Shown here: positions 16,341-46,600 of the stretch, piece after piece
Layout: each line of letters starts with the position of its first letter
Numbering within the stretch: position 1 is the stretch's first letter
Assembly: GCF_003611635.1 (NCBI RefSeq)
Contig: NZ_RAVZ01000001.1
Coordinates: forward strand, 1-64,000
DNA from: Corallococcus terminator
Lineage (GTDB): Bacteria > Myxococcota > Myxococcia > Myxococcales > Myxococcaceae
Direction: 5' to 3'
Length of the DNA stretch: 64,000 nucleotides
Program-made: the position numbers and the translations under genes
Notes under the pieces: generated by a model
The model's database searches: none
What the model saw: the letters and a program-made list of their open reading frames with translations, nothing else
Told to the model about the DNA's origin: nothing

Positions 16341-17614
16341 CGAACTCTTCCTGGTCTCCCTCCTCCTGGCGCGCGAAGCCAGTCCGCTACATCCCCGACG
16401 ACTACCCCGACCTTCCCGCCCTCGCGCGCGTGGAAGCCGAACTGGCGAAGCTGCCGCCCCTGGTCCCCGCGGAGGAGACGCGCCGGCTGCGCGACGCGCT
16501 GGGACAGGTCGCCGAAGGCAAGGCGTTCCTGCTCCAGGGTGGCGACTGCGCGGAGAGCTTCAAGGAGTTCGGCGCCGAGAACGTCCGGGACACCTTCCAG
16601 CTCCTGTTGCAGATGGCCGGCGTGCTCACGTTCGCGGGCGGCTGCCCGGTGGTGAAGGTGGGCCGCATCGCGGGCCAGTTCGCCAAGCCGCGCTCCAGCG
16701 CCACGGAGACGATCAACGGCGTCACCCTGCCCAGCTACCGCGGCGACATCATCAACGGCATGGACTTCAACTCGCGCGAGCGCACGCCGGATCCGCAGCG
16801 CCTCTTGCGCGCGTACCACCAGTCCGCGGAGACGCTGCAGCTTGTGCGCGCCTTCGCTCGCGAGGGCTACACCGACCTGACCCGCCTCCTGGGACACCGG
16901 CCGGAAGCCGAAGGCGCCGTGCGCCCGGTGGACTTCTTCACCAGCCACGAGGCCCTGCTCCTCAACGTCGAACAGGCGATGACCCGCTTCGATGAGGCGA
17001 CGGGCGGCTGGTACGACACGTCCGCGCACATGCTCTGGATTGGCGAGCGCACCCGCCAGTTGGACGGCGGCCACGTGGAGTTCATGCGCGGCATCCAGAA
17101 CCCCATCGGCCTCAAGTGCGGCCCCACGATGGAGCCGGACGACCTGTTGCGCATCATCGACACGCTCAACCCCCAGGGCACCCCGGGCAAGCTCACGCTC
17201 ATCGGGCGCTTCGGTTCGGATCAGGTCGCCACCGCCCTGCCGCGCCTGATGGCCGCCACCCGCCGCCACGGCGGCCCCGTGGTGTGGTCCATCGACCCGA
17301 TGCACGGCAACACGCACAAGGCGAGCAACGGCTACAAGACGCGCTCGCTGGAGCGCATCCTCGCGGAGGTCATGGCCTTCCTCCAGGTCGCCGCCGCCGA
17401 GGGCGTCCACCCCGGAGGCCTCCACCTGGAGATGACCGGCCAGGACGTCACCGAGTGCCTGGGCGGCCCGCTGGATGTCTCCGAGGACGACCTCTCCAGC
17501 CGCTACCACACGCACTGCGATCCCCGCCTCAACGCGGATCAGGCCCTCCAGCTCGCCTTCCGCGTCGCAGACGGCCTCCACACCGTGCGCGCCCCCCAGG
17601 CCCGCGCGGCCTGA
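16337..17614 (+). CDS. aroA5: AroA5-type class II DAHP synthase, 425 aa
   Basis: Condenses phosphoenolpyruvate and erythrose 4-phosphate to DAHP, the first shikimate step, so feeding chorismate into DHB. Seen: class II (plant/PhzC-like) motifs [99 protein letters not shown] and [17 protein letters not shown]. It is shorter than plant and mycobacterial enzymes and starts close to the core, so an N-terminal feedback-control extension seems to be missing (inference). The GTG 16337 start overlaps the mxcG stop. A DAHP synthase at this place is a known feature of the Stigmatella mxc locus, where I recall the name aroA5; here it is a dedicated iron-responsive precursor supply gene. Confidence 0.92.
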
Positions 17615-17668
17615 CGCGGCGCGCGGCCTTGACAGTCCCGAACCGAAGCGGCTAAACGTCGCGCCGTT

Positions 17669-17688
17669 GATAATGAGAACCATTTTCA
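17669..17688 (+). promoter_or_regulatory. Fur box overlapping the mxcH start
   Basis: The 19-mer 17669-17687 matches the Fur consensus at 16 positions, the best of the three strong boxes; a near-perfect 7-1-7 repeat (TGAGAAC-C-ATTTTCA, 17674-17688) overlaps it. The predicted mxcH start codon (17673-17675) lies within the site. Controls mxcH-mxcI. Confidence 0.85.
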
Positions 17689-20273: not shown

Positions 20274-20328
20274 GACGCGCCTCCCGCATCCGCACGCAGC
20301 ACCCCACACCCCATCGAAAGGGAAGTCC

Positions 20329-30000: not shown

Positions 30001-30544
30001 CGTCAACATGCTGGTGCTGCGCACGCCGCTGGGCGGCGATCCCCCGTTCAGCGAAGTGCTGCGCCACGTAAAGGAGCGCTCGCTGGGCGCCGCCGCCCAC
30101 GCCGAGCTTCCCTACGAGCAGTTGGGCCGCGGCCGGCCTCCGCTGTTCCGCGCCGCGTTCGGCACCCAGAACCAACCGCGCGAGCGCGTGTCGCTGCCCG
30201 GCCTGGAGGTGGAGCCGCTGCTGTTCGACTCCGGCGTGTCCCGGCTGGACCTCACGCTGTGGGCGTCGGAGACACCCGAAGGGCTGCGCTGTCACTGGAC
30301 CTACGCCACCCGCCTGTTCGACGCGTCCAGCGTGGAGCGGCTGCACCGCCGCTTCGTGCGCCTGCTGGAGGATTCGCTGGCGCGCCCGGACACGCGGCTC
30401 GCGGCGCTCGCCCTGGACTCCGACGACGATGCGACACCCCAGCTCCAGGGCGCCCTGGGCCGGCTGGGCACCCGGCGGCGCCGCGGCGCTGGCCCGGACG
30501 GCGGCACCCCTCCACCCGGCACGTCAGGAAACCCCACCTCATGA
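27062..30544 (+). CDS. fatty acyl-AMP ligase-ACP-condensation protein (FAAL-ACP-C), 1160 aa
   Basis: The start enzyme of the lipopeptide assembly line. Domains seen: an adenylating domain (about 1-580) with LQYTSGSTGSPRGVVLTHG, WLPPYHDMGLIGGIL and GRNHHPHDLE, signatures of fatty acyl-AMP ligases rather than acyl-CoA synthetases, plus the C-terminal lysine region KTSSGKVQRRA; an ACP with Ser633 in LGLDSLASVEL; and a condensation domain (about 685-1110) with intact H824-H-I-V-A-D-G. There is no A domain after the C domain, so it must act on an amino acid held by another protein, most simply the NRPS two genes downstream. A low-complexity Arg/Gly/Pro tail follows the C domain. The stop overlaps the next start (ATGA). 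Activation of a free fatty acid in the cytoplasm and N-acylation of the first residue are inferred. Confidence 0.92.
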   Translation: MNFLQIIALRAASKPDARAFVFLDDGESEGGSLTYAELQRRTLEVGGMLQEAGARGERVLLLFPPGLDYLVAFLGCLQAGAVAVPAYPPDPARLARTLPRLEALTADAQVRFVLAPSFIRDMAQGLFEQSGALARASWLAIEDAAHGHAGAWKAPDTTPDTVAFLQYTSGSTGSPRGVVLTHGNLLHNSQAIQRCFQHDADSVGVIWLPPYHDMGLIGGILQPLFVGFPVVLMSPMDFLARPLRWLQAVSRYRATTSGGPNFAYELCVRKATPEQVAALDLRSWRLAFNGAEPIHPATLERFRDTFAPAGFRPEAMYPCYGLAEGTLIASGKAAALPLLRAFRKDALADNEAVPVAATEPGALQLVGCGVRLPDQELLIVDPTRRLPLPEGKVGEVWLRGPSVAQGYWNRPEETAESFQARRADAPTEGPYLRTGDLGFLREGELFVSGRLKDLIIVRGRNHHPHDLERTAVASHPALRPGCSAAFGVQTHGAERLVLVQEVDTRKAFDATECARGLREAVVREHGVQLDEVVFIEPGSLPKTSSGKVQRRATRAAWLEGQLQVVAHDTSGAHDGAPSAVPELPPLDALRALTSDVRDARIADWLLARASAALRVAPGSVDREAPLVQLGLDSLASVELRADIESALGLSIPLPELLGSITLTELTRRCQGALDSGPGLALRPTPVPRDGALPLSFPQEELWLASRLDPSGGGYNISSALSLRGTLKTAWLEAALLEICRRHEALRTCFPEVDGRPVQRILAAGPLEIPVEDLRALAPEAREARLQEVALSEARAPFALQHGPLLRARLLWLEDARHVLLFTVHHIVADGWSMRLIIQELTALYSAFQAGVTPTLPALPYQYADFAVWQRQRLTGAHLESLLDWWRAEVAGLPTGLKLPTDREPGGPPDARGGTLSTRLSPELAARLREGCARQGVTPFMWMLAVFQTLLARTTGQEDVPVGVADLGRAAPGSERVIGNFVNMLVLRTPLGGDPPFSEVLRHVKERSLGAAAHAELPYEQLGRGRPPLFRAAFGTQNQPRERVSLPGLEVEPLLFDSGVSRLDLTLWASETPEGLRCHWTYATRLFDASSVERLHRRFVRLLEDSLARPDTRLAALALDSDDDATPQLQGALGRLGTRRRRGAGPDGGTPPPGTSGNPTS

Positions 30545-31593
30545 AGGATGCCCTGTCAGGACTGGGGGCGCGCTCACGCCGCCCCGTGAAGCTGTCGCGT
30601 ACGGACCTGGTGACGACGCGCCTTCCCGAAGGCGAGGACTGTCCGCTCATCATCGAGCCCCGCGTGGAGGGGCTGGAGCTGGTGCAGTGGGCGGGTGACC
30701 ACCGCGCGTATCTGGAGGAGGAGCTGGCCCGGGTGGGCGGCCTGATGCTGCGCGGCTTCCGCATGGGCGGCGTGGACGGCTTCGCGGACTTCGTGCGGGC
30801 GACGTCCGGCGCGCCCCTGCCCTACACGGAGCGCTCCTCTCCGCGCGAGGTCGTCAAGGATCAGATCTACACGTCCACGTCGCACCCGTCGGACCAGGAG
30901 ATCTTTCCGCACACGGAGCAGTCCTACAACCTGACGTTCCCGCAGAAGATCTACTTCCACTGCGTGACGGCGCCCACCGAAGCCGGCGCCACGCCCATCA
31001 CCAGCACCCGCCGCATCCTGCGCGAGCTGCCGCGCGACGTGGTGGAGCGCTTCGTGGCGCGCGGCTACCGCTACGTGCGCAACTTCGGTGACGGCCTGGG
31101 CCTGTCGTGGCAGGAGGCCTTCCAGACGACGGAGCGCGCGGAGGTGGAGCAGTACTGCCGCGACAGCCAGATCGACTTCCAGTGGCCAGGCCAGGGCCGG
31201 CTGCGCACCAGCCAGCGGCGTCCGTGCGTGGCCCGCCATCCGACCACCGGGGAGCTGGCGTGGTTCAACCACGCCACGTTCTTCCACGTGAGCACCCTGC
31301 CCGCGCCCCTCGTCGCCCACCTGCGCTCGCTCTACGCCGAGGAGGAGATGCCCAACAACACCTTCTACGGCGACGGGTCCCCCATCGAGCCGGAGGTGCT
31401 GGAGCTTCTGCGCGCCGCCTACCTGCGCGCCCGCGTGGCGGTGCCGTGGCAGGTGGGGGACGTGCTGCTCTTGGACAACATGCTCATGGGACACGGTCGC
31501 CAGCCCTTCAAGGGTGAGCGCAAGGTCGTGGTCGCCATGGCGGACCCCCGGCGCTGGGCGGACGTCGTCTTCGACGGGCCGCTGCCTGCCTGA
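30541..31593 (+). CDS. SyrP/TauD-like Fe(II)/2-oxoglutarate oxygenase 1, 350 aa
   Basis: Seen: metal ligands H124-T-E126 in FPHTEQSYN and H318 in LMGHGRQPF, with the 2-oxoglutarate-binding arginine region GERKVVVAM. The variant with Glu in place of Asp (HxE) is, as I recall, seen in SyrP-like enzymes that hydroxylate carrier-bound amino acids at the beta carbon. Other blocks: GLMLRGFRM, YVRNFGDGLGLSWQEAFQTT, RRPCVARHPTTGELAWFNHATFFH and NNTFYGDGSPIEPEVL. ATG 30541 overlaps the previous stop, giving coupled translation. It is a clear paralogue of the next gene. Likely role: hydroxylation of one PCP-bound residue of the lipopeptide; which one is unknown. Confidence 0.85.
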   Translation: MKDALSGLGARSRRPVKLSRTDLVTTRLPEGEDCPLIIEPRVEGLELVQWAGDHRAYLEEELARVGGLMLRGFRMGGVDGFADFVRATSGAPLPYTERSSPREVVKDQIYTSTSHPSDQEIFPHTEQSYNLTFPQKIYFHCVTAPTEAGATPITSTRRILRELPRDVVERFVARGYRYVRNFGDGLGLSWQEAFQTTERAEVEQYCRDSQIDFQWPGQGRLRTSQRRPCVARHPTTGELAWFNHATFFHVSTLPAPLVAHLRSLYAEEEMPNNTFYGDGSPIEPEVLELLRAAYLRARVAVPWQVGDVLLLDNMLMGHGRQPFKGERKVVVAMADPRRWADVVFDGPLPA

Positions 31594-31618
31594 CGCCCCC
31601 GCGCACACGAGAGAACAC

Positions 31619-32665
31619 ATGACGCGCAAATCCGACATCGCAGGCCCCGGCATCCCTTCGCGCCGCCGCGCGCCCATGAAGCTGTCCACCACGTCGCTGG
31701 TGAAGGTGGGCAGCCTTCCTGGCGCCGAGGGCTTCCCGCTCGTCGTGGAGCCCACGCTGGAGGACCTGGACCCGGCGGACTGGGCCGCGAACCACCGCGA
31801 GTGGATCGACGCGAAGCTGCAGGAGTCCGGCGCCCTGCTGTTCCGCGGCTTCCGCGTGCCGGATGCCTTCGCCTTCCGCGCCTTCGTGGGAGCGCTCAGC
31901 AGCGAGCTGCTGGACTACGTGGAGCGCGCGGCGCCTCGCACGCAGGTGGCGCCCAACGTCTACACCTCCACCGAGTTCGCCGCGGATCAATCCATCCCGC
32001 TGCACCACGAGATGTCCTACTCCCACAACTGGCCCTCCCGGTTGTGGTTCTTCTGCGACGTGCCCTCGCCGGTGGGAGGCGCCACGCCGCTCGCGCCGGA
32101 GCGACTGGTCACGTCGCGCATCCCGGAGGACATCCGGCGGCGCTTCCTGGAAAAGAAGGTCATGTACGTCCGCAACTACGGCGAGGGCGTGGACCTGTCG
32201 TGGCAGGAGGCGTTCCAGACGCAGGATCGCGCGGAGGTGGAGCGCTACTGCCAGAGCTGCGGCATGACCTGCGAGTGGCGCGACGGCGATCGGCTGCGCA
32301 CGCGCGCGGTGCGCCAGGTGATGGCCACCCACCCGCGCACCGGCGAAGCGCTGTGGTTCAACCACGCGCCCATCTTCCATGAGACGAACCTGTCCCCTTC
32401 CGTGCGCGAAGCGCTGCGGGCCCAGTTCCGTCCGGACGAGATGCCGCGCAACGCCTTCTATGGCGACGGCAGCCCGCTGGAGCCGGAGCTCCTGGAGCGC
32501 ATCCGCGGCGTCTACGCCGACGCCACCGTGCGCTTCCCCTGGCAGAAGGGCGACGTCCTCATGGTGGACAACTTCCTCGCGGTCCACGGACGCGACCCCT
32601 TCGAGGGCGAGCGCTCCATCCTGGTCGCCATGGCCGAGCTGTACGTGAGCCCGGGCCCGGCCTGA
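31619..32665 (+). CDS. SyrP/TauD-like Fe(II)/2-oxoglutarate oxygenase 2, 348 aa
   Basis: A paralogue of the preceding gene with the same architecture. Metal ligands are H129-H-E131 in IPLHHEMSYSH and H323 in LAVHGRDPFEGER. LHHEMSY is closer to the SyrP form than the first copy. Shared blocks include GALLFRGFRV, YVRNYGEGVDLSWQEAFQT, GEALWFNHAPIFHET and RNAFYGDGSPLEPELL. The start ATG 31619, preceded by GAGAG, lies 25 bases after the first copy; an internal ATG (31676) would give a shorter form that aligns with the first paralogue's PVKLSRTDLV. Tandem duplication with divergence is likely, so the two may hydroxylate different residues. Confidence 0.85.
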   Translation: MTRKSDIAGPGIPSRRRAPMKLSTTSLVKVGSLPGAEGFPLVVEPTLEDLDPADWAANHREWIDAKLQESGALLFRGFRVPDAFAFRAFVGALSSELLDYVERAAPRTQVAPNVYTSTEFAADQSIPLHHEMSYSHNWPSRLWFFCDVPSPVGGATPLAPERLVTSRIPEDIRRRFLEKKVMYVRNYGEGVDLSWQEAFQTQDRAEVERYCQSCGMTCEWRDGDRLRTRAVRQVMATHPRTGEALWFNHAPIFHETNLSPSVREALRAQFRPDEMPRNAFYGDGSPLEPELLERIRGVYADATVRFPWQKGDVLMVDNFLAVHGRDPFEGERSILVAMAELYVSPGPA

Positions 32666-32726
32666 GCAGCATGCCGCCCCAACCTCCCCTCCCTTTCATC
32701 CTTCCGCACGCAGGAGCAACACGACG

Positions 32727-35700
32727 ATGAGCATCGACGAGATCGAGGGCTATCCCCTCTCCGCCGAGCAGCGGCGCCTCTGGGCCACTGGCGGCCCGTC
32801 CGGCACGCAGCGGGTGCGCGCGGAGCTGCGCCTCACGGGCCCCCTGCGCGTGGAGGCGCTCGAGCGGGCCCTGGCCGACACGGGCCAGCGCTATGAGGTC
32901 CTCCGCACGCGCCTGTCGCGGCTGGCCGGCATGAGCACGCCGCTGCAGGCCGTGGCGGAGCTGTCCGTCGGACTCCACCGGGGTGTTGCTCCGCCGGAGC
33001 CCGTCGCCCAGGCCCCGGAGGAAGGCCCGCTGCGCTGCACGGTGCACTCGGAGGACGCCCAGCATCACCGGCTCTGGCTGGAGCTGCCGGCGCTGTGCAT
33101 GGATCCGTTCGCGCTGCGCGACCTGACGACCGCGCTGGGCCGCGCCTACGCGGGCGAGCCGGGCCCGGACGAACCGCTCCAGTACATCGACTACGCGGAC
33201 TGGCAGCGCGAGTTCCTCGCGGGCGAGGACAAGGCCGAGTCCGCCGCGTACTGGCGCCAGCTCGCGGAGTCCCTCCCCGCGCCCACGACCCTGCCCTACG
33301 AGCGCAAGGAAGGCGCCCGGGCGCCAACGTCCTTCCAGGTGTTGGAGGCGGAGGTGGCGGGCACCGGGCCGCTGCGCGCGCTGGCGGGCCGCTTCAGCGT
33401 GGAGCTGGACACGCTCACGCACGCCGCGTTCCAGGGACTCCTGTGGCGACTGACGGGGCGCGGGCCGGTGGTGTCCACGCTCCGGGTCGATGGTCGTGCG
33501 TACGAACAGCTTGAGGGCGCGCTGGGCACCTTCGCCCGTTCGCTGCCGGTGGTGACGACGATCCCCTCCGACTACCGGCTGGCGGATCTGCTGGAGCGGC
33601 TGCGCCAGACGCACGTAGCCCACCGCAAGCACGCCATCGCCTTCGACGCGGACGCCTACCCCTCGCTGGTGCCGTCCGCCGCGCAGGCCCCGTGCGCGTT
33701 CCGCTTCGTCTCCTGGCCCGACGAGGAGCACGCGGGCACGCGCTTCCACCTGGAGCAACTGGAGGCTCACGAGGACGTGGCGGGCCTGATGCTCGCCGTC
33801 ACCGACGACGGCCGTCGCCTCGCGCTGCGCCTGGAGTACGACGCGGGCCGCTTCGAGGAAGCGGACATGCGGCGGCTGCTCCAGACCTACCGCGTCTTGT
33901 TGGACGAGCTGGTCGCGCACCCCGAAGCCCGCCTGGGAACGCTGCGCCTGCTGGACGCGGAAGAAGAGCGCCGCGTGGTGCACGCCTGGAACGCCACCGC
34001 GCTGAGCGTGGAGGGCGGCTGCGTCCACGAGCACTTCGCTGCCGTGGCGGCCTCCCAGCCGGACGCCATCGCCCTGGTCTGCGAGGGCGTGCGGTTGACG
34101 TTCCGCGAGGCCAACCAGCGCGCCAACCAGTTGGCCGCGCACCTGCGCGCCATCGGTGTCGCGACGGGGGACGCCGTGGGCCTGTGCATGCCCCGATCGG
34201 TGGACGCCATCGTCGCCCTGCTGGGCATCCTCAAGGCGGGCGCGGCCTACGTACCGCTCGATGCGGAGCTGCCGGCGAAGCGGCTCGTCTTCATCCTGGA
34301 GAACACGCGCGCGTCCGTCGCCGTCACCACGGCGGAGCTGGAGGGGCGCCTGGAGGGCTTCACCGGCACGCGGGTGCGCCTGGACGCGGACGCCGCGAAC
34401 CTCGCCTCGCGAAGCGACGCGGATCCTTCGCTGCCCCTGGATCCGGAGCACGTGGCCTACGTGCTCTACACGTCCGGCTCCAGCGGCCAGCCCAAGGGCG
34501 TGATGGTGCGCCACCGGGGGCTGACCAACCTGGGCGCGGCGCTCGAACAGGCCGTCTATCGCGGACGCGGCCCCCGGCTCGCGGTAGGCCTCAATGCGTC
34601 CCTCGCCTTCGACGCCTCCGTGAAGCAGCTCATCCAGGTGTGCCAGGGCCACACGCTCCACGTGCTCACCGACCGCATCCGGCTGGACGGCAAGGCGCTG
34701 GCGGCCTCGCTGCGCGAACACCCGCTGGACGTGTTGGATCTCACGCCCACGCAGTTGCGGCTGTTGCTGGAGAACGAGGACGGCGCGAGCCTGGCCCAAC
34801 TGCCGGTGCTGCTGCTGGGGGGCGAGGCCATCACCCCGGACCTCTGGAAGCGCCTGGCCCTGGAGGGGCGCGGTGCCTTCAACCTCTACGGTCCCACCGA
34901 GTGCACGGTGGACACCACGGCGGTGGCCGTCACGGCCCAGGCGCCCGAGCCCACCATCGGCGGACCACTGGCCAACGTGCGCGTGTACCTGCTGGACGCG
35001 GACGGGCGGCCCGTACCCGTGGGCGTCCCCGGCGAGCTGTTCATCGGCGGGGATGGCGTGGCGCGGGGCTACCACGGCCGGCCGGACCTGACCGCGGAGC
35101 GCTTCGTGCCCGACCCGTTCAGCGGCGTCCCCGGCGCACGGATGTACCGCAGCGGCGACGTGATGCGCTTCAACGCGCAGGGGCAGCTTGTCTTCATGGG
35201 CCGCGCCGACTTCCAGGTGAAGGTGCGCGGCTTCCGCATCGAGCTGGAGGAGATTGAACAGGCCCTGGGAAGCCACGCGTCGGTGAAGCACGCCGCCGTC
35301 GTCGCCCGGACCGATGCGCAGGGTGAGCAGCAGCTTGTCGCCTATGTGGTCCCCAAGCGCCGCCATGGCACCCGGCTGGACTCGCGCGCCCGGTACCCGC
35401 TGCCCAACGGCATGGCGGTCCTCCACCAGAACAAGAACGAGACGGACTACCTCTACCGCGAGCTGTTCCACGAGCGGCTGTACATCCGCCACGGCGTCCA
35501 GCTCCCGGCACGGGGCGTCATCCTGGATGTCGGGGCGAACATCGGCATGTTCTCGCTGTTCGCCAGCCTGAACGCGCCGGAGTGCCAGGTGTATGCCTTC
35601 GAACCGCTCGCGCCCCTGTACGAGACGGCCGCCGCGAACTGCGAGCTGTACGGCCCCCGGGTGAAGGTGTTCCCGGTGGGGCTGTCCAACCACGAGCACT

Positions 35701-36755
35701 CCGCGACGTTCACGTACTACAGCCGCTACACGATGATGTCCGGCCAGAGCGAGTACGCGAACGCCGTGGACGAGGTGAGCGTCATCAAGACGTTCCTGCG
35801 CAACCAGCGCACCGCGGGGGACTCGGCCGCGGACACGCTGCTGACCAACGCGGACGAGCTGCTGGAGGGCCGCTTCGCCGAGGAGCGCCACACGGCGCGG
35901 CTGCGCCGCCTGTCCGACGTGATGCGCGAGGAAGGCATCCGCCACGTCGACCTGTTGAAGGTGGACGTGCAGCGCGCGGAGCTGGACGTGCTGGAGGGCA
36001 TCGACGCGGAGCATTGGCCGGGCATCCAGCAGGTGGTGATGGAGGTGCACGACGCCCGGGGCCACGCGAGCGAGGGCCGGGCCCAGCGCATCACCGGGCT
36101 GCTGGAGTCGAAGGGCTTCCGCGTGCGGGTGGATCAGGATCCGCTCCTGGAAGGCACGGACCGTCACAACCTCTATGCCTGGCGCGAGGGCGGACCGGTG
36201 GTGGCGGCCCCGGCCTCCGCCGCACTGGACGCGAGGACGGTGGCGACCCCGCTCACCGACGATGCGGTGCGCACGCACCTGCGGCAGGTGCTGCCGGAGT
36301 TCATGCTGCCGCGCCATGTCGTTTTCCTGGACGCGCTGCCGCTCACCCTCACCGGCAAGGTGGACCGCAAGGCCCTGCCCGCGCCGGAGGCGGTGGCATC
36401 CAGCGCGCGCGCCGCCTACGTGGAGCCGCGCAACGAGCTGGAGCGCCGCATCGCGGCCGTGTTCGCGGACGTGCTGAAGCTGGAGAAGGTGGGCATCCAC
36501 GACGCCTTCTTCGACCTGGGCGGGCACTCGCTGCTGCTCGTGCAGGCGCACAACCGGCTGGGCAAGGTGCTGGAGACGCCCCTGTCCATGTTGGATCTCT
36601 TCCGCCATCCCACGGTGGCCTCGCTCGTCGCGTTCCTGGAGGCGGGCAAGGCGCCCGCGCGCGAGACGACCGAGGACGTGGACGAAGCCGCCCGTCGCCG
36701 GGTGGAAGCCATGAAGCGTCAGAAGGACCGCAGCAAGGGCAGGGGTGACACATGA
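32727..36755 (+). CDS. NRPS: degenerate C, Glu-type A interrupted by FkbM methyltransferase, PCP (1342 aa)
   Basis: Domains seen. (1) A C-like domain (about 8-410) in which HHxxxDG is replaced by P121-A-L-C-M-D-P, so it lacks the catalytic histidines. (2) An A domain from about 440 with VLYTSGSSGQPKGVMV, FDASVKQLI and FNLYGPTECTVD; specificity positions read D-A-K-D-L-G-L-V-D-K, one change from the surfactin Glu code as I recall it. (3) After FQVKVRGFRIELEE (near 829), about 300 residues of FkbM-family methyltransferase with VILDVGANIGMFSLF near 930 and HVDLLKVDVQRAELDVLEG, before the A domain resumes (LPEFMLPRHVVFLDALP, LTGKVDRKAL). (4) A PCP with Ser1268 in FFDLGGHSLLLVQ. An AGGAG site at 32712-32716 supports ATG 32727. 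The stop overlaps the PKS start (ATGA). It probably supplies a methylated Glu-like first residue. Confidence 0.9.
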   Translation: MSIDEIEGYPLSAEQRRLWATGGPSGTQRVRAELRLTGPLRVEALERALADTGQRYEVLRTRLSRLAGMSTPLQAVAELSVGLHRGVAPPEPVAQAPEEGPLRCTVHSEDAQHHRLWLELPALCMDPFALRDLTTALGRAYAGEPGPDEPLQYIDYADWQREFLAGEDKAESAAYWRQLAESLPAPTTLPYERKEGARAPTSFQVLEAEVAGTGPLRALAGRFSVELDTLTHAAFQGLLWRLTGRGPVVSTLRVDGRAYEQLEGALGTFARSLPVVTTIPSDYRLADLLERLRQTHVAHRKHAIAFDADAYPSLVPSAAQAPCAFRFVSWPDEEHAGTRFHLEQLEAHEDVAGLMLAVTDDGRRLALRLEYDAGRFEEADMRRLLQTYRVLLDELVAHPEARLGTLRLLDAEEERRVVHAWNATALSVEGGCVHEHFAAVAASQPDAIALVCEGVRLTFREANQRANQLAAHLRAIGVATGDAVGLCMPRSVDAIVALLGILKAGAAYVPLDAELPAKRLVFILENTRASVAVTTAELEGRLEGFTGTRVRLDADAANLASRSDADPSLPLDPEHVAYVLYTSGSSGQPKGVMVRHRGLTNLGAALEQAVYRGRGPRLAVGLNASLAFDASVKQLIQVCQGHTLHVLTDRIRLDGKALAASLREHPLDVLDLTPTQLRLLLENEDGASLAQLPVLLLGGEAITPDLWKRLALEGRGAFNLYGPTECTVDTTAVAVTAQAPEPTIGGPLANVRVYLLDADGRPVPVGVPGELFIGGDGVARGYHGRPDLTAERFVPDPFSGVPGARMYRSGDVMRFNAQGQLVFMGRADFQVKVRGFRIELEEIEQALGSHASVKHAAVVARTDAQGEQQLVAYVVPKRRHGTRLDSRARYPLPNGMAVLHQNKNETDYLYRELFHERLYIRHGVQLPARGVILDVGANIGMFSLFASLNAPECQVYAFEPLAPLYETAAANCELYGPRVKVFPVGLSNHEHSATFTYYSRYTMMSGQSEYANAVDEVSVIKTFLRNQRTAGDSAADTLLTNADELLEGRFAEERHTARLRRLSDVMREEGIRHVDLLKVDVQRAELDVLEGIDAEHWPGIQQVVMEVHDARGHASEGRAQRITGLLESKGFRVRVDQDPLLEGTDRHNLYAWREGGPVVAAPASAALDARTVATPLTDDAVRTHLRQVLPEFMLPRHVVFLDALPLTLTGKVDRKALPAPEAVASSARAAYVEPRNELERRIAAVFADVLKLEKVGIHDAFFDLGGHSLLLVQAHNRLGKVLETPLSMLDLFRHPTVASLVAFLEAGKAPARETTEDVDEAARRRVEAMKRQKDRSKGRGDT

Positions 36756-39700
36756 GCGGCACCGGTGGACAGGAAGGGCTGGAGGGCATCGCCGTCGTCG
36801 GCATGGCGGGCCGTTTTCCCGGCGCCGCGGACGTGGACGCGTTCTGGAAGAACCTCCGCGAGGGCGTGGAGTCCATCCGCTTCTATTCCGAGGCGGAGCT
36901 GCTGGACGCGGGCGTGTCCCCGGAACTCCTGGCGGATCCCGCCTACGTGCGGGCCAACGCGGCCCTGGAGGGCGTGGAGCTGTTCGACGCCGGGTTCTTC
37001 GGGATGAACCCCGGCGTGGCGCAGATCACCGACCCGCAGCAGCGCGTGTTCCTGGAGGTGGCGTGGCACGCCCTGGAGCACGCGGGCTACGACGCGGAGC
37101 GGTTCTCCGGTGACATCGGCGTCTTCGGCGGGCTCAGCATCAACACGTACCTGCTGGAGAACCTGGCCGGCAACCGGCAGCTCATCGAATCCCACGGCCT
37201 GCTCCAGGCGGCCATCGCCAACCGTGGCGACCATCTGGCCACGCTGACGGCCTACAAGCTCAACCTGCGCGGCCCCGCCTTCACCGTGCAGAGCACCTGT
37301 TCCACCGCCCTGTCCGCGGTGCACCTGGCGTGTCAGGCGCTGCTCTCGTACCAGACGGACATGGCCCTGGCTGGCGGCGTCGCGGTGCGCGTGCCGCAGA
37401 CCATGGGCTACCTGTTCCAGGAAGGGGGCGTGGCCTCTCCGGACGGACACTGCCGCCCCTTCGATGCCCAGGCGAAGGGTACCGTCTTCGGCAGCGGCGC
37501 CGGCGCCGTCGTCCTCAAGCGCCTGGAGGACGCCATCGCCGCGGGCGACACCATCCACGCCGTCATCCGGGGCTCGGCGGCCAACAACGATGGCGCGGCG
37601 AAGATCGGCTACACGGCGCCCTCCCCCGAAGGCCAGCGCCGCGCCATCAGCATGGCCCTGGCGGTGGCGGGCGTGTCCCCGGAGACCGTGGGGTACGTGG
37701 AATGTCACGGCACCGGCACCGTGCTGGGAGACCCGATAGAGGTGGAGGCCCTCACCCAGGCCTTCGGTGCGAAGACGCAGCGGCGACAGTTCTGCGCGCT
37801 CGGGTCGGTGAAGAGCAACATCGGCCACCTGGACACGGCGGCGGGCATCGCGGGGCTCATCAAGACGGTGCTCTGCCTGAAGCACCAGCAGCTTCCGGCC
37901 ACCCTGCACTTCGAGTCGCCCAACCCGGCCATCGACCTGCAGAAGAGTCCCTTCTACGTCAACGCGCGCCTGAGCGACTGGGCCCGGCCGGCCACGCATC
38001 CCCGGCGCGCGGGCGTGAGCTCGTTCGGCATCGGTGGCACCAACGTGCACCTGGTGCTGGAGGAAGCGCCGCCCGTGCAGGCCGCGCGTGCGTCCGACGG
38101 CTGGCACACGCTGGTGCTGTCGGCGCGCACCGCGAGCGCGCTGGAGGCCCAGACGGAGGAGCTGCGGCGGCACCTGCAAGCGCACCCGGAGCTGGACCTG
38201 GCGGACGTGGCCTTCACGCTCCAGCAGGGGCGCAGGTCCTTCGAGGTGCGGCGCGCCCTCACCTGCCGCTCGCTGGCAGACGCGGTGGAGACCCTGGAAC
38301 GCCTGCCCCCGGAGCGCACGTGGACGGGCAAGGTGGAGGGCCATGCCCGCTCCGTCGCGTTCCTCTTTCCCGGCGTGGGCAGTCAGCATCCGGGCATGGC
38401 GCGCGAGCTGGCTGAAGCGCTGCCTGTCTTCCGTGAGCATCTGGACGCGTGCCTGAAAGCGCTGGACGCGGCGCTGGGCATGGACCTGCGTCCCCTGCTC
38501 TTTCCCCGTCCCGGCGCCGAAGCCTCGGCCGCGGAGGCCCTGTCCCATACGCACGTGGCCGAACCCGCGCTCTTCGCGGTGGAGTACGCGCTGGCGGCGA
38601 CGTGGAAGGCCTGGGGTGTCCAGCCGCGCGCGGTGCTGGGCGAGGGCATTGGCGAGTACACCGCCGCGTGTGTCGCGGGCGTGGTGTCCTTCGCGGACGC
38701 CGTCACCCTGGTGGCGCTGCGCAGCCGGTTGGTGAAGCGCCTGCCCGAGGGCGCCATGACGCTGGTCATGCTCCCCGAGCGCGAGCTTGAAGCGCTGCTG
38801 CCCCAGCACGGCCTGTCCCTGGCCTGGGTGGGCCGGCCCTCGGTGGGCACGGTGTCCGGCCCGAAGGCCGGCATCGAAGCGCTGGAGGCGGGGCTGCGGC
38901 AGCGGGGCGTCGCCTTCCGGCGTCTGTTGGGAGACCGGGCGCTCCAGTCACCTGACGTGGATGGCATCAGCGCGGAGCTGGGCACCGCCGTGCGCCGCGT
39001 CTCCTTCCAGCCCCCCACCGTCCCCTTCTTCTCCGGCGTCCACGCCGGCTGGGTCACGGGGACGGAGGTGGCGGAGGCGTCGTGGTGGGCATCGCAGTTG
39101 CGGCGCACGCTGCGGCTGTCGCCGGGGATTGAAGCGCTGTTCCAGGAGCCGGACCGGTTGCTGCTGGAGGTGGGCCCGGGGCGGACCTGGCTCAACATCG
39201 CCCGGCTGCACCCCGCGAAGTCCCCCCGGCAGACGGTGCTGGGCTCGCTCGCGCAGGACGTGAAGGAGGCCTCGGAGCCCAAGGCGATGCTGGCCGCGCT
39301 CGCGCGCCTGTGGGTTTCCGGCGCGCCCCTGGATTGGGAAGGCGTGCATGCGGGGGCGTCGCGACGTCGCGTCCCGCTGCCGCAGTACCCCTTCGAGCGG
39401 CAGCGGCTGTGGCTGGACCCGACGCCGCGCACCCCCGCGCGCACCGTGACGGAGGAGCCGCTGCCCCCGCGCCGGGTGGATCCCGCCGACTGGTTCTTCG
39501 TCCCCTCGTGGAAGCGGACCGCGCCGCCAGTGCCTGCTTCGCGCGAGCCGGAGCGCGTGCTGCTCTTCGTGGACGCCTTCGGCCTGGGGGAGCTACTGGC
39601 CTCCCGCCTGGAGCAGCGCGGCCACACGGTGCTGCGCGTGGAGCGGGGCACCTCTGGGGCCTCCGCGCCTTCCGCGGGCCGCTACACGCTGGATCCCCGC

Positions 39701-42439
39701 TCGCCCGGTGACTACCGGCGACTGTTGCAGGAGCTCAAGGATCAGGGCCGTTCGCCCGCGCGCATCGTGCACCTGTGGAGCGTGGATCCGCAGCGCACCT
39801 CGGGCTCGCGCCTGGACGTGCTGCCCCGCGTGGAGGAGGCGGGCTTCCGCAGCTTGATGTACCTGGCCCAGGCGGTGGGCGCCGTGTACGCCACCACGCC
39901 CGTGGAGTTGCAGGTGCTCGCAAGCCAGCTCTTCTCCGTGTCGGGTGAGGAGACGATCTGTCCGGAGAAGGCGACCCTGCTGGGGCCCTGTCTCGTCATC
40001 GGGCAGGAGTACCCGAACGTGCGGTGCCGGCTCATCGACGTGCCCCTGCCCACCCCCGGCAGCACCGGGGAGGCGGGGCTCGTCGGGCACCTGCTCGCGG
40101 ATTTGGAGTCGCGCGCGGTGGACGCTGTCACCGCGTGGCGTGGACGGCACCGCTGGGTGCGCACGCACGAGTCCGTGCGCCTGGAGGCACCGCAAGGCCG
40201 CGTGCCCCGGCTGCGTCCGGGGGGCGTGTATCTGGTGACGGGCGGCCTGGGCGGCATCGGCCTGGTGCTCGCGCAGGACGTGGCGAGGATGGCGGGGGGC
40301 GGCCGGCTGGTGTTGCTGGGACGTCAGCCGCTGCCGGACCGCGCGACCTGGAGCGCCCTGCTGGAGTCGCAACCCCAGTCACCCCACGCGAGCATCATCC
40401 GCGCCATCCGCGACCTGGAGCGCGGCGGCTCCGAGGTGATGACCGTCGCCGCGGACGTGACGGACCGGGCGCGCATGGCCGAGGTCCTGGCCGACGTGCG
40501 CGCGCGCTTCGGCGCCGTGCACGGCCTCATCCACGCGGCGGGCGTGCCGGCGGGCGGCGCGCTCCAGCTCAAGACGGATGAGATCGCGCAGCGCGTGTTC
40601 GCCCCCAAGGTGCGGGGCACGCTCGTGCTGGACTCGCTCCTGGAGGGCCAACCGCTCGACTTCGTCATCCACTGCGCGTCCCGCACCTCCGTGCTGGGCG
40701 GCTTCGGACAGGCGGACTACGTCGCGGCCAACGCCTTCCTGGACGCCTGGGCGCACCACAAGTCCCTCACGTCCTCCACCTTCACCGTCGCCGTGGACTG
40801 GTGTTCGTGGCGCGACGTCGGGATGCTCGCCAACGCCGCCGGAGCGAAGGCCGCGTTGCCGGTCCGGACCCCTGCGGCGGCCATCAGCGGCGCACCCGTG
40901 GAGCTGGGACACCCCCTGCTTTCGCGGCGGATGCCCTCCGCCCCCGGCACGGAGGTGTACGAGACGGTGCTCCGCGTGGACACGCACTGGGTGCTCGACG
41001 ACCACCGCATCCTGGGCAACCCGGTCATCGCGGGCACGACCTACCTGGAGATGGTGCGCGCCGCGTTCGCGCAGCGCTCGGAACGCCAGGACCTGGAGAT
41101 CTCCGACGTCTACTTCCTCACCCCGCTGTCGGTGCGCGTGGGCGACCAGCGCGTGGCGCGACTGGAGCTGACCGACGAGGGCGCGGAGGGCTTCAGCTTC
41201 CACGTCAGCAGCCGGAGCGCGGAGGGCGCGGACCTCATCCGTCACGTCATGGGACGGGCGCGGGTGATGGCCTCCACCCCGGCGCCCCAGCACGACCTGG
41301 CGGCGCTCACGGCGGGCTGCCCCACGGTGAAGGTCTTCACCGACGACGACTCGCACGACGAGGACCACGGTCCCCGGTGGCAGTGCGTGCGGCAGGTGCG
41401 CTGGGGCGAACAGCAGGTGCTGGCCACCCTGGAGCTTCCGGCCGAGTTCGCCTCCGACCTGGACGTGATGAAGCTGCACCCGTCGCTGCTGGACAAGTCC
41501 ATTGGCACCGGGCGCGACTTCATCCTGGGCGCGGTGCCGTACATGCCGTACTCGTACCAGCGCCTCGTCTTCCGGCACCCCTTCACGCGCCGCATCCACG
41601 TGCACACGCGCTCGCACGGTGAAGGCTCCAACCGCAGCGAGACCCCGGCCTTCGACCTGCGGATCATGGACGACACGGGCCGGGAGCTGGTGGAGATCAC
41701 CCGCTTCGCGCTCAAGCGCGTCAACGACGTGGGCGCCATGTACAAGAACCTGGCGAGCCGCGAAGCCGCGCCCGCCGCCGCGGTCGTGAGGGCACCGGCC
41801 ACCGCGCCCGCGTCCGCCCCCGCGGAGAACGTCTTCCAGCAGATCCTCCGCCAGGAGGCCATCTCCCCGGAGGAGGGCGTGGACCTGCTGCGGCGCGTGC
41901 TCGCGAGCGCGGACCTGCCGCAGGTGGTGGTGTCCACGCGCGACCTGAACGCCCTCCTGGCGCGTGGCCTCATCCACACGTCGCCCTCCAAGGCCGCCGA
42001 GGAGGAGGTGGAGGCGGAGGCCAGCACCGACGCGTCCTCCCAGGCCATCCGGCGGCCCCGGCCCGAGCTGCCCATCCCCTTCCAGGCCCCCGAAACGAAG
42101 TTGCAGGAGCAACTGGGTGACATCCTGAAGGAGGTCCTCGCGGTGGACCGGGTGGGCCTGCGCGACAACTTCTTCGACCTGGGCGGGGACTCCGTGATGG
42201 CCATCCAGATCGTCTCCCGCATCAAGAAGCGCCTGGGGCGGGAGATCGCGGTGGTGCAGCTCTTCGAGGCCCCCACGCTGGGCGCCCTGGCCACGCTGCT
42301 GGGTGGCGCGGCGGGAGGCCTGGAGGACGCGACCTCCGCGCAGGCGGCGGACGCCACACCTGCCGGCGAGGACAGCGCGAGCCGGGGTGCTCGCCGTCGC
42401 GCCAGGGCCATTGCCCGGCGCGGTCCCGAGGGCGAGTAG
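36752..42439 (+). CDS. type I PKS: KS, inactive AT, KR, DH-like, ACP (1895 aa)
   Basis: Seen: a KS (about 10-440) with Cys183 in VQSTCSTALSA and the histidines in CHGTGTVLGDP and KSNIGHLDTAAG, all intact. An AT-like domain (about 540-830) starts VAFLFPGVGSQHPGMA, but the nucleophile motif GHSxGE reads G-E-G632-I-G-E and the HAFH motif reads RALQ, so Ser and His are both lost. A KR region (about 910-1355) has YLVTGGLGGIGLVL and Ser1310/Tyr1323/Asn1327. A DH-like domain follows, with His1418 in DDHRILGNPVIAG and Asp1581 in HPSLLDKSIG, so KR precedes DH. ACP Ser1814 is in LGGDSVMAIQ. The extender unit must come from another AT, perhaps the intact one in the KS-AT-ACP module of the next synthase. 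Expected product: a beta-hydroxy or, if the DH works, an alpha,beta-unsaturated ketide. Confidence 0.9.
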   Translation: MSGTGGQEGLEGIAVVGMAGRFPGAADVDAFWKNLREGVESIRFYSEAELLDAGVSPELLADPAYVRANAALEGVELFDAGFFGMNPGVAQITDPQQRVFLEVAWHALEHAGYDAERFSGDIGVFGGLSINTYLLENLAGNRQLIESHGLLQAAIANRGDHLATLTAYKLNLRGPAFTVQSTCSTALSAVHLACQALLSYQTDMALAGGVAVRVPQTMGYLFQEGGVASPDGHCRPFDAQAKGTVFGSGAGAVVLKRLEDAIAAGDTIHAVIRGSAANNDGAAKIGYTAPSPEGQRRAISMALAVAGVSPETVGYVECHGTGTVLGDPIEVEALTQAFGAKTQRRQFCALGSVKSNIGHLDTAAGIAGLIKTVLCLKHQQLPATLHFESPNPAIDLQKSPFYVNARLSDWARPATHPRRAGVSSFGIGGTNVHLVLEEAPPVQAARASDGWHTLVLSARTASALEAQTEELRRHLQAHPELDLADVAFTLQQGRRSFEVRRALTCRSLADAVETLERLPPERTWTGKVEGHARSVAFLFPGVGSQHPGMARELAEALPVFREHLDACLKALDAALGMDLRPLLFPRPGAEASAAEALSHTHVAEPALFAVEYALAATWKAWGVQPRAVLGEGIGEYTAACVAGVVSFADAVTLVALRSRLVKRLPEGAMTLVMLPERELEALLPQHGLSLAWVGRPSVGTVSGPKAGIEALEAGLRQRGVAFRRLLGDRALQSPDVDGISAELGTAVRRVSFQPPTVPFFSGVHAGWVTGTEVAEASWWASQLRRTLRLSPGIEALFQEPDRLLLEVGPGRTWLNIARLHPAKSPRQTVLGSLAQDVKEASEPKAMLAALARLWVSGAPLDWEGVHAGASRRRVPLPQYPFERQRLWLDPTPRTPARTVTEEPLPPRRVDPADWFFVPSWKRTAPPVPASREPERVLLFVDAFGLGELLASRLEQRGHTVLRVERGTSGASAPSAGRYTLDPRSPGDYRRLLQELKDQGRSPARIVHLWSVDPQRTSGSRLDVLPRVEEAGFRSLMYLAQAVGAVYATTPVELQVLASQLFSVSGEETICPEKATLLGPCLVIGQEYPNVRCRLIDVPLPTPGSTGEAGLVGHLLADLESRAVDAVTAWRGRHRWVRTHESVRLEAPQGRVPRLRPGGVYLVTGGLGGIGLVLAQDVARMAGGGRLVLLGRQPLPDRATWSALLESQPQSPHASIIRAIRDLERGGSEVMTVAADVTDRARMAEVLADVRARFGAVHGLIHAAGVPAGGALQLKTDEIAQRVFAPKVRGTLVLDSLLEGQPLDFVIHCASRTSVLGGFGQADYVAANAFLDAWAHHKSLTSSTFTVAVDWCSWRDVGMLANAAGAKAALPVRTPAAAISGAPVELGHPLLSRRMPSAPGTEVYETVLRVDTHWVLDDHRILGNPVIAGTTYLEMVRAAFAQRSERQDLEISDVYFLTPLSVRVGDQRVARLELTDEGAEGFSFHVSSRSAEGADLIRHVMGRARVMASTPAPQHDLAALTAGCPTVKVFTDDDSHDEDHGPRWQCVRQVRWGEQQVLATLELPAEFASDLDVMKLHPSLLDKSIGTGRDFILGAVPYMPYSYQRLVFRHPFTRRIHVHTRSHGEGSNRSETPAFDLRIMDDTGRELVEITRFALKRVNDVGAMYKNLASREAAPAAAVVRAPATAPASAPAENVFQQILRQEAISPEEGVDLLRRVLASADLPQVVVSTRDLNALLARGLIHTSPSKAAEEEVEAEASTDASSQAIRRPRPELPIPFQAPETKLQEQLGDILKEVLAVDRVGLRDNFFDLGGDSVMAIQIVSRIKKRLGREIAVVQLFEAPTLGALATLLGGAAGGLEDATSAQAADATPAGEDSASRGARRRARAIARRGPEGE

Positions 42440-42519
42440 CCCAAGGCCCCCGCCGGCCCCGACACCCTTCTTTTTTCTTCTTCCGATTCCGACGACACGA
42501 ACCCCCCGCGGTGACATCC

Positions 42520-43599
42520 ATGAAGGTCGAAAGCCCTCTTTCCGAGAGCGTCGCGCAGCACCTGCGCACGCGGATCGAACAGTCCGCCCGCCGTCCCCTC
42601 TCCCCCCAGGAGCAGGCCGTGCTGGACACCGAAGGCCCCAAGGCCTTCATCCTCAAGCAGCTCTTGTCGAAGAAGTTCCGCAAGTGGTCCGTGGACGCGG
42701 ACACGCAGCAGAACATCACGCGCACGGTGGACGCCGCGCTGAAGGAGCAGAAGCCCATCGAGCTCGTGCACCCCATGGGCGGCTACAAGATCTGGCGGCT
42801 GCCGTCCTCGCCCGAGGTGGACTGGGCGGAGTTCTTCGGCATCTCCCACATCCTCCAGTACCTCAGTGGGATCGCCGCGGGGTACGCGCCCGGCGTGCAC
42901 ATGCAGTTCTTCATGTACACGTTCCTCCCCCAGCGCCACGACAACATCAGCGCGGAGGACATCGAGCGCTACGTGAGCTCCTTCCAGGCGCTGCTGGACG
43001 CGTTCAGCGAACACCTGCCGTCCAACGTGAAGCTCTCCATCGTCCGGGACGCGGCCTTCTACAGCCGTGAGGAGTACTTCGGTCTGCTGGACGAGCGGTA
43101 CGAGATGATGGCCATGGGGTTCAACGACTTCCCGCAGAAGCAGCGGGACACGTTCCTCACCTGGGCGCGCCAGAACATCCAGTGGAAGGGCGTGGAGGAC
43201 TGGACCCAACTGACGCACGAGCAGAAGGAGGAGAAGATCCTCCGGGGCGCCGTCTACGAGGTGGTCGGCATCTACACGGTGGAGAAGACCGCCGAGTTCA
43301 TCATGGGCGGCCAGCGCATCGTCGTCTTCGTGTCGCCGGGCACCAACACCATCGGCATTGGCAGCACGAAGTCCTCGCGCGCCAAGTTCTGGATTGGCAC
43401 CGGCGTCCTGGAAGACCGCGAAGGCGCGCTCTACGACGTGGTGCTCACGCCCAGCCAGTGGGAGCGCACCGCGGACCTGTCCCGCACCGTGCTGGAGGTC
43501 AACCTGCTGCCGCTGCGCAACCTGGGCAGCATCCAGGTGGTGCACCAGCGGCTGGACTTCTCCCAGCCCGGTGAGAGCACCCCCGCCGCCACCGGCTAG
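42520..43599 (+). CDS. unrecognised protein in the NRPS/PKS operon, 359 aa
   Basis: I do not recognise a characterised family. Seen: no signal peptide or membrane helix; an N-terminal helical part (SESVAQHLRTRIEQSARRPLS, FILKQLLSKKFRKW); and a conserved-looking core ELVHPMGGYKIWRLPSSPEV, DWAEFFGISHILQYLSGIA, AGYAPGVHMQFFMYTFLPQ and DIERYVSSFQALLDAF, then AAFYSREEYFGLLDERYEMM. I recall uncharacterised bacterial proteins sharing the 'GGYK.W..PEvDWAElF...Y.PGv' pattern. The order (basic/aromatic block, DxAE, Y.PG, an acidic residue, then an R-Y helix) loosely recalls DIT1/PvcA isocyanide synthases; that is a remote hypothesis. It sits between two PKS genes (80 bases after one, 59 before the next), so it is probably a tailoring enzyme. 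ATG 42520 is chosen; GTG 42511 is possible, and neither has a clear ribosome-binding site. Confidence 0.75.
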   Translation: MKVESPLSESVAQHLRTRIEQSARRPLSPQEQAVLDTEGPKAFILKQLLSKKFRKWSVDADTQQNITRTVDAALKEQKPIELVHPMGGYKIWRLPSSPEVDWAEFFGISHILQYLSGIAAGYAPGVHMQFFMYTFLPQRHDNISAEDIERYVSSFQALLDAFSEHLPSNVKLSIVRDAAFYSREEYFGLLDERYEMMAMGFNDFPQKQRDTFLTWARQNIQWKGVEDWTQLTHEQKEEKILRGAVYEVVGIYTVEKTAEFIMGGQRIVVFVSPGTNTIGIGSTKSSRAKFWIGTGVLEDREGALYDVVLTPSQWERTADLSRTVLEVNLLPLRNLGSIQVVHQRLDFSQPGESTPAATG

Positions 43600-43658: not shown

Positions 43659-46600
43659 ATGAGCCGCACCGGAACTGAAATCGCCATCATCGGCATCGCC
43701 GGGCACTACCCGAAGTCCGAACGGGTCCAGGACTTCTGGCGGCAGGTGCGCGAAGGCACGGAGCTGGTGTCGTTCTTCACGCCGGAGGAGCTGGTCCAGC
43801 GCGGCGTGCCGGCGGAGCAGGTGGCCCAGCCCGGGTACGTCCGGGCCGCGGCGTACCTGGAGGAGATGGAGCAGTTCGACGCCACGTTCTTTGGCATCAC
43901 GCCCCGGGAAGCGGCGCTGCTGGATCCGCAGCACCGTCACTTCCTGGAGTGCGCCTGGGAGGCGCTGGAGGACGCCGGGTACAACCCGCAGCAGGTGCCG
44001 GGCCGCGTGGGCGTCTACGCGGGCGCGGCCATGGACACGTACCTGCTCTACAACCTGATGCGCAATCCGGTGGCGCTGGCCACGGATCCGCTCCAGCTCC
44101 AGTTGGCCAACGACAAGGACTACCTGACGACGCGGGTGTCCTACAAACTGAACCTCCGCGGGCCCAGCCACCTGGTGCAGTCCGCGTGCTCCTCGTCGCT
44201 CGTCGCCACGCACGTCGCCTGTCAGGCCCTGCTCAACGAGGAGTGCGACGTCGCCCTCGTCGGCGGCGCCTCCGTGCTCGTGCACACCCGCAATGGCTAC
44301 ATGCACTCCGCCGGGGGCGTGGCCTCCGTGGATGGGCACTGCCGCAGCTTCGACGCGGACGCCACGGGCACCCTCTTCGGCAGCGGCGTGGGCTGCGTGG
44401 TGCTCAAGCCGTTGGACCGGGCGATGGCGGACGGCGACACCGTCCACGCCATCATCCTGGGCACCGCCATCAACAACGACGGCAGCAACAAGGTCGGCTT
44501 CACCGCCCCCAGCATGGACGGCGTGTCGGAGGTGGTGCTGGAGGCGCTCGGCAACGCGGGCGTGGAGCCGGACAGCATCGGCTACGTGGAGGCCCACGGC
44601 ACCGCGACGCGGCTGGGCGACCCCATTGAATTGCAGGGCCTGACGCGGGCGTGGCGCAAGTCCACCCGGCGCAAGCAGTTCTGCGCCATCGGTTCGGTGA
44701 AATCCAACGTGGGCCACCTGGACGCCGCGTCCGGCGTGACGGGCCTCATCAAGGTCGCGCTCGCGCTGCGCGACCGGGTCATCCCCCCCAGCCTGCACTT
44801 CCGGCGCCCCAACCCGGCGCTGGAGCTGCCGGAGAGCCCCTTCTTCGTCAACGACCGCCCCCTGCCCTGGGATGCCCCTCCGGGCGGCGCCCCCCGGCGC
44901 GCGGCCGTGTCCTCGCTGGGCATTGGCGGCACGAACGCGCACGTCATCCTGGAGGAGCCGCCCCGCGCGGAAGCCTCCGCCCCCGCGGATCCCTACCAGC
45001 TCCTGGTGCTCAGCGCGCGCACGGCCGGAGCGCTGCAACGGGCCACCGACAACCTGGCGGATCATCTGGCCGAACAGCCGGACGCGCCGCTCGCGGACGC
45101 GGCGTTCACGCTCCAGGCCGGACGCCAGCACTTCACGCACCGCCGCTTCGCCGTGGTGCGCGACGCGCAGGACGCGCTCGCGGCGCTCTCCACCCCGGAG
45201 CGGCTGCCCACGCGCCAGCAGGCCGCCCAGCGCCCCCCGGTGGCGTTCCTGTTCTCCGGCCAGGGCTCGCAGTACGCCGGCATGGCCGCGGGCCTCCACC
45301 GCCGCGAGCCGGTGTTCCGCGAGCACTTCGACGCGTGCGCGGAGCGGGTGCGCGCCCTGCGCGGCGTGGACCTGCGCACCCTGGTGCTGGGCGGCGCGGG
45401 CGAGGAAGCCGACGCGCGACTGAAGGCGACGGAGTGGGCCCAGCCCGCCCTCTTCGCGGTGGAGTACGCGCTGGCGCGGCTCTTGATGCACTGGGGCCTG
45501 CGCCCCTCGGCACTGCTGGGACACAGCATCGGTGAGTACGTCGCCGCGTGTCTTGCGGGCGTCTTCTCCCTGGCGGACGCGGTGACGCTGGTGTGCGAGC
45601 GCGGCCGGTTGATGGCGGGCCTGCCCCCGGGCGCGATGAGCGCGGTGCCCCTCGCGGAGGAGGCGGTGCTGCCCCTGCTGGGGCGGGAGCTGTCGCTCGC
45701 GGCGGTGAACGCCCCCGGCCGCTGTGTCGTCGCAGGTCCCCTGGCGGCGGTGGAGTCACTCGAACGGCTGCTGGACGCGCGCGGCCTCAAGGCACGGCGG
45801 CTGCACACGTCGCATGCCTTCCACTCCTCCATGATGGACCCCATCCTGGAGCCCTTCACCCGCGCGGTGCGCGCGGTGGAACGCAAGGCGCCGCAGGTGG
45901 AGCTGTACTCCAACCTCACGGGCCAGCCCCTGACGGCGGCGGAGGCCACGGATCCCGACTACTGGGCCCGGCACCTGCGGGGCGCCGTCCGCTTCTCCCA
46001 GGGCATCACGGCCCTGCTGCGCAAGCCGGACCTGCTCGCGCTGGAGGTGGGCCCCGGCAACGCGCTGACGACCTTCGCGCTCCAGCACCCGGAGCGCGCG
46101 GCGGGCGTCGTCGTGTCCCCCACGCTGCCCCACGCGCTGGAGCGCGAGCGCGACGTGCCCGTCCTCCTGGAGGCCGTGGGCAAGGCGTGGCAGGCGGGCG
46201 TGGACGTGGACTGGAAGGCCTTCAACAGCCGCGCGGCGCGCCGCCGCGTGTCGCTGCCCACCTACCCCTTCGAGCGGCAGCGCCACTGGCTGGAGCCCAC
46301 CCTGGGGCCGGGAGCGCCGCCGCCGGGCGCCATCCAGGCAGCGCCCTTGGCGCACGAACCCGCGGACACCGTGGACAGGAGCGCGGACACTGCGGCCGTC
46401 CCGGGCAACCGGCCGGAGATGAGCGTCTCCCACGCGCCGCCGCGCGACGCTTTGGAGACGGAGTTGTGTGAGGTGTGGAGCGGGCTGCTCGGCATCCACC
46501 CCATCGGCATCCACGACAGCTTCTTCGAGCTGGGTGGGGACTCCGTCATCGGTCTGCAACTGCTCGGGGCCCTGCGCGACCGGTGCCGCGTGGAGCTGGC

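What the first reader, a model, noticed from the sequence alone, without database searches (positions are those of the whole stretch)
38633..38653. PKS acyltransferase domain has lost both catalytic residues
The nucleophile motif GHSxGE reads G-E-G-I-G-E (Gly632 for Ser) and the usual SHAFHS is replaced by DRALQS, so the Ser-His dyad is gone while KS, KR and ACP stay intact. An otherwise cis-AT protein thus seems to need loading in trans. The next synthase has an intact malonyl-type AT (Ser623, SHAFHS) that could serve both modules.
Basis: partly seen in the sequence, partly recalled or inferred. Interest (0 to 1): 0.72.

Follow-up and report, generated by a model that had tools for sequence, protein, structure and literature searches.

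The report
Conserved dead acyltransferase in myxobacterial synthase
One module of a large myxobacterial lipopeptide assembly line keeps the folded loading domain that should supply its building block, but that domain lost its catalytic residues long ago, and the loss is shared by eight genomes, so the module must be fed by another enzyme or else not extend the chain.

Summary
The 1,895-aa protein at 36752-42439 is KS-AT-KR-DH-ACP. Its AT lacks the nucleophile (Ser→Gly632), the flanking His (→Glu631), the catalytic His (→Gln732), a conserved Asn (→Gly694) and the oxyanion Gln (→Val542). KS, KR, DH and ACP motifs are intact. It is the only one of 24 AT-like domains in the genome without the serine. 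Sequencing error is excluded: seven further genomes (Corallococcus, Myxococcus, Archangium MAG, Paraliomyxa) carry the same GVG…GEGIGE loss. Paraliomyxa still has the catalytic His, so the decay was stepwise. The dead ATs form one clade, stay under purifying selection and keep the AT fold. Of 25 columns ≥95% conserved in active ATs, 19 are kept; four of the six lost are active-site positions. Reductive domains stay conserved, so extension probably still occurs with malonyl supplied in trans. The data do not choose between them. It is a conserved variant of known AT-inactive modules, not a new principle. No enzyme was assayed.

The parts
36752..42439 (+). PKS module, 1895 aa: KS-AT(inactive)-KR-DH-ACP
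   Evidence: Pfam; translation
36782..37915 (+). KS domain, Cys183 and both His motifs intact
38360..39322 (+). AT domain, full length, catalytically dead by sequence
   Evidence: PF00698 147.7 bits; residues; fold
38372..38386 (+). GVGSQ: oxyanion Gln replaced by Val542
38639..38656 (+). GEGIGE in place of GHSxGE: His to Glu631, Ser to Gly632
38933..38950 (+). DRALQS in place of SHAFHS: catalytic His to Gln732
40223..40816 (+). KR domain, catalytic residues intact
40910..41731 (+). DH domain placed after the KR, His1418 and Asp1581 present
42110..42301 (+). ACP, phosphopantetheine Ser1814 present
43659..64000 (+). Next synthase, KS-AT-T followed by NRPS modules; continues beyond the window
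45246..46199 (+). Intact malonyl-type AT of the next synthase (GQGSQ, GHSIGE, SHAFHS), candidate trans donor
27062..30544 (+). Fatty acyl-AMP ligase-T-C, start of the assembly line
31514..32665 (+). TauD-family Fe/oxoglutarate dioxygenase
32727..36755 (+). NRPS module C-A-(FkbM-type methyltransferase)-T, directly upstream of the dead-AT module
42511..43599 (+). 362-aa orphan protein between the two PKS genes, present in 6 of the 8 genomes

Best explanation
The module takes the acyl-aminoacyl chain from the upstream NRPS, condenses it with malonyl, then reduces and dehydrates it, probably giving an alpha,beta-unsaturated (vinylogous) amino acid inside a lipopeptide. Its own AT cannot load malonyl and survives as part of the KS-AT scaffold. 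Malonyl is placed on its ACP in trans by a malonyl transferase, either the cell's FabD or the intact AT of the partner KS-AT-T synthase. Shown by sequence: the loss, its conservation, the intact KS/KR/DH/ACP motifs, the predicted fold, and the presence of both donor types. Inferred: that extension still happens, that loading is in trans, and which enzyme does it.
For: Residues lost are mainly catalytic: of 25 columns at least 95% conserved in 57 active ATs the dead ATs keep 19, and the six lost include His631, Ser632, Asn694 and His732. Same loss in eight genomes. Dead-AT dN/dS is 0.12-0.43, similar to KR and DH of the same protein and about 1.2-1.5 times the intact neighbouring AT. AT fold predicted at pLDDT about 70-90 with VIA Z about 19-22 to PKS ATs. 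KS, KR, DH and ACP catalytic residues conserved. Within the family the partner AT at 82% identity or more occurs only in genomes with the dead AT; it also accompanies it in Paraliomyxa, where it is encoded divergently, and as a partial contig in the Archangium MAG. The G068 and Paraliomyxa clusters hold no other AT. Precedents: FabD serves AT-less BrnF in barnesin (PMC13096860); inactivated cis-ATs were rescued by a trans AT in auroramycin (PMC6943886).
Against: No biochemical or product data. Co-occurrence of the partner AT does not prove trans loading, since both proteins belong to one assembly line. The domain may have non-catalytic roles not visible here. The Arg that binds malonyl carboxylate in active ATs (Arg657) is kept in all eight, so some ligand binding cannot be excluded.
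Confidence: 0.72

Rival explanations
1. Donor is the AT of the downstream KS-AT-T synthase, which serves both modules.
For: Malonyl-type and intact; found with the dead AT in all eight genomes, including where gene order differs; only intact AT of the cluster in G068 and Paraliomyxa.
Against: A close relative in G067 (contig C82, 82% identity) works in a cluster stretch without a dead-AT module next to it, so nothing marks this AT as adapted to double duty. A neighbouring cis-AT serving another module has less precedent than FabD.
Confidence: 0.35
2. Donor is the housekeeping malonyl transferase FabD (the other sub-case of the best explanation).
For: A stand-alone AT of FabD size is present in every genome with the dead AT; those of the window genome, Paraliomyxa and Archangium fall in one FabD-like clade. 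FabD is the reported donor for barnesin, and the same paper cites pseudotetraivprolide and detoxins (PMC13096860).
Against: The precedent module lacks an AT altogether, unlike this one. FabD is universal, so its presence is not informative.
Confidence: 0.4
3. The module no longer extends: the chain passes through it, or a neighbouring module acts twice instead.
For: Irumamycin module 12 has the same Ser-to-Gly loss and was explained by iteration of module 11 (PMC11672594).
Against: KR, DH and ACP catalytic residues are conserved in the orthologues (domains also in Paraliomyxa) and these domains are under purifying selection, which is hard to explain if no beta-keto group is formed here.
Confidence: 0.17
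4. The AT retains or gained another activity, with Glu631 or another residue replacing the dyad.
For: Val542, Glu631 and Gly632 are invariant in eight orthologues although only 37% of AT columns are. Arg657 is retained.
Against: The other GEGIGEY sequences found (a cyanobacterium, two Legionella-family MAGs) are truncated AT remnants, which fits decay better than a new activity. Paraliomyxa keeps the His that the others lost, so the pocket is not fixed.
Confidence: 0.06

Closest known systems
Irumamycin PKS module 12 (PMC11672594)
   Same: Full cis module whose AT has Ser replaced by Gly and degraded motifs, judged inactive by its authors.
   Different: Streptomyces macrolide line; explained there by iteration of the previous module; conservation across genomes was not part of the passages read.
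Barnesin A BrnF with FabD (PMC13096860)
   Same: KS/DH/KR/ACP module after an NRPS in a lipopeptide line, malonyl supplied in trans.
   Different: BrnF has no AT domain at all; here a full-length dead AT is kept, the order is KR then DH, and the line otherwise uses cis-ATs.
Colibactin ClbG to ClbK (PMC10924459)
   Same: Mixed NRPS-PKS line in which a separate AT delivers an extender to a module.
   Different: Dedicated transferase for aminomalonyl encoded in the cluster; no such gene was found here.
FK228 DepB/DepC AT-deficient modules (from memory, not checked)
   Same: PKS modules of an NRPS-PKS line reported to depend on FabD-type enzymes.
   Different: Not compared by sequence here.

Membership tests
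Catalytically inactive AT in a type I PKS module | AT domain present by homology | tested here: met
   PF00698 147.7 bits, cut-off 32.7; AT fold by VIA Z about 22
Catalytically inactive AT in a type I PKS module | Nucleophilic Ser and catalytic His absent | tested here: met
   Gly632 and Gln732; the His is kept only in Paraliomyxa
Catalytically inactive AT in a type I PKS module | No malonyl transfer by the domain | not testable with these tools
   needs an in vitro loading assay
Trans-AT PKS | Module lacks an AT domain | tested here: not met
   full-length AT retained; the other modules of the line have intact cis-ATs
Trans-AT PKS | Dedicated stand-alone AT encoded in the cluster | tested here: not met
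   No stand-alone AT in the cluster region of the window genome, G068 or Paraliomyxa
Functional cis-AT module | GHSxG and HAFHS/YASHS dyad | tested here: not met
   GEGIGE and DRALQS

The most novel reading that the evidence does not exclude
The dead AT is a true pseudoenzyme domain: its altered pocket (Val542, Glu631, Gly632, with Arg657 kept) is maintained for a non-catalytic job, such as recruiting a donor AT or positioning the ACP, in an otherwise cis-AT line.
Probability: 0.15. Interest if true: 0.65.

Novelty: new variant of a known kind. Interest (0 to 1): 0.42.

Why it matters
Inactive ATs are usually noted one cluster at a time and could be passed off as recent damage. Here the loss is old, apparently arose once, and is kept in eight genomes under purifying selection, so it is a working state of an assembly line. 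The set offers a natural series (an intact relative in an Acidobacteriota MAG, Ser lost but His kept in Paraliomyxa, both lost elsewhere) for asking how a cis module becomes dependent on trans loading and why the AT fold is then kept. It also makes a testable prediction that FabD or a neighbouring AT serves secondary metabolism in myxobacteria.

Tried and rejected
Sequencing error or frameshift: rejected, eight assemblies share the replacements. Recent pseudogenisation: rejected by dN/dS and intact reading frames. Downstream ATs at about 79 and 100 kb on the contig as the obligate donor: no counterpart in the G068 and Paraliomyxa clusters. The stand-alone AT on contig C848 (L019): no counterpart among the small open frames in G022 and G068, so not a general donor. 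The 362-aa orphan at 42511-43599 as donor: no Pfam or PDB match at E up to 10, AlphaFold model unusable at pLDDT 39.5, absent beside the module in Archangium and Paraliomyxa. The KS half of the KS-AT model was too poor to use. A paper search for a named product of this cluster found none; searches for standard phrases on inactive ATs returned little. A plasmid search gave only a 246-base, 76% match.

Full report
Observation. The protein at 36752-42439 is a PKS module with the order KS-AT-KR-DH-ACP. In its AT the nucleophile motif reads GEGIGE at 38639-38656, with Gly632 for Ser and Glu631 for His. The region of SHAFHS reads DRALQS at 38933-38950, and Gln732 occupies the position of the catalytic second His. 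Val542 replaces the oxyanion Gln, and a conserved Asn is Gly694. KS Cys and His, KR Lys/Ser/Tyr, DH His and Asp, and ACP Ser are present.

Is it more than chance. Of 24 AT-like domains in this genome this is the only one without the serine. Against 57 active ATs, the dead ATs keep 19 of 25 columns that are at least 95% conserved; the six not kept are His631, Ser632, Asn694, His732 and two hydrophobic positions. So catalysis is lost while the structural core is kept.

Conservation. All have GVGSQ and GEGIGEY. Paraliomyxa has DRALHS, retaining the catalytic His, so the simplest history is that Ser, His631, Asn694 and Gln were lost first and the catalytic His later. The dead ATs are one clade with 100/100 support, whose branching order mirrors that of the partner AT; the nearest intact AT is from an Acidobacteriota MAG, with modest support of 91/90. 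A collection scan with two peptide patterns found this full-length family only in myxobacteria.

Constraint and fold. Pairwise dN/dS of the dead AT is 0.12-0.43, similar to KR and DH of the same protein and 1.2-1.5 times that of the intact neighbouring AT. An AlphaFold model built on only eight sequences predicts the AT part at about 70-90 pLDDT; VIA-align gives Z 19-22 to PKS AT domains. The KS part of that model is not usable.

Context. The line starts with a fatty acyl-AMP ligase-T-C protein, a TauD dioxygenase and a C-A-methyltransferase-T module, then this module, an orphan 362-aa protein, and a KS-AT-T synthase running into a long NRPS. The ligase, dioxygenase, NRPS and dead-AT genes keep this order in Paraliomyxa, where the KS-AT-T synthase is encoded divergently. 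In the Archangium MAG the dead-AT gene is followed by what looks like a tRNA nucleotidyltransferase gene (by inspection), while a partial copy of the partner AT lies on another contig.

Mechanism. Because KR, DH and ACP remain conserved, the module most likely still extends, which requires malonyl from elsewhere (inference). Candidates present wherever the dead AT is present are the partner AT and FabD. The partner AT is supported by exclusive co-occurrence at 82% identity or more within the family and by being the only intact AT of two clusters. But both proteins are parts of one line, so co-occurrence is expected anyway, and a close relative in G067 sits directly after an NRPS without a dead-AT module. 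FabD has published precedent in barnesin, whose module also makes a vinylogous amino acid (PMC13096860). The present data do not decide. Skipping, or iteration of a neighbour as proposed for irumamycin module 12 (PMC11672594), is less likely given the conserved reductive domains.

Classification. It works like an AT-inactive module fed in trans. It is not a trans-AT PKS module in the strict sense: the AT is present and no dedicated trans-AT was found. The variant features are a full-length AT, folded by prediction and selectively stripped of catalytic residues, fixed across several genera, with a stepwise loss visible.

Limits. No enzyme was assayed, the product is unknown, and organism names for G000, G022, G025 and G068 were not given by the tools. 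The scan can only find sequences that match its two peptide patterns. The alignment used letters copied; rebuilt a longer alignment from locus references and shows the same invariant residues.

Noticed in passing
window 42511-43599: 362-aa orphan protein with no Pfam or PDB match, found in 6 of 145 genomes of the order, the same six that have the dead-AT gene apart from the Archangium MAG.
   Followed up: partly
window 40223-41731: DH follows KR instead of preceding it; the same KR-DH order occurs in an intact-AT Acidobacteriota module (L075, 1252-8409).
   Followed up: partly
L080, L081, L102, L106, L079: Truncated AT remnants with GEGIGEY (GCGIGEY in L102) in PKS modules of two Legionella-family MAGs and a cyanobacterium; the middle part of the AT is missing. 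They lie apart from the window's clade in the tree, so the GHS-to-GEG change seems to have happened more than once.
   Followed up: partly
window 32727-36755: FkbM-type methyltransferase domain inserted in the C-terminal part of an adenylation domain, conserved to Paraliomyxa.
   Followed up: no
window 27062-36755: Two consecutive C domains (end of the FAAL-T-C protein and start of the next) with a TauD dioxygenase gene between them; one may recruit the hydroxylase.
   Followed up: no
window 5790-21585: Catecholate siderophore locus of myxochelin type (aminotransferase, SDR, isochorismate synthase-like, AMP ligase, C-A-T-reductase, DAHP synthase, TonB-dependent receptor), named from Pfam domains only.
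   Followed up: no
L139 (G067 contig C82): A second KS-AT-T synthase, AT 82% identical to the partner AT, directly after an NRPS and without the dead-AT module.
   Followed up: partly
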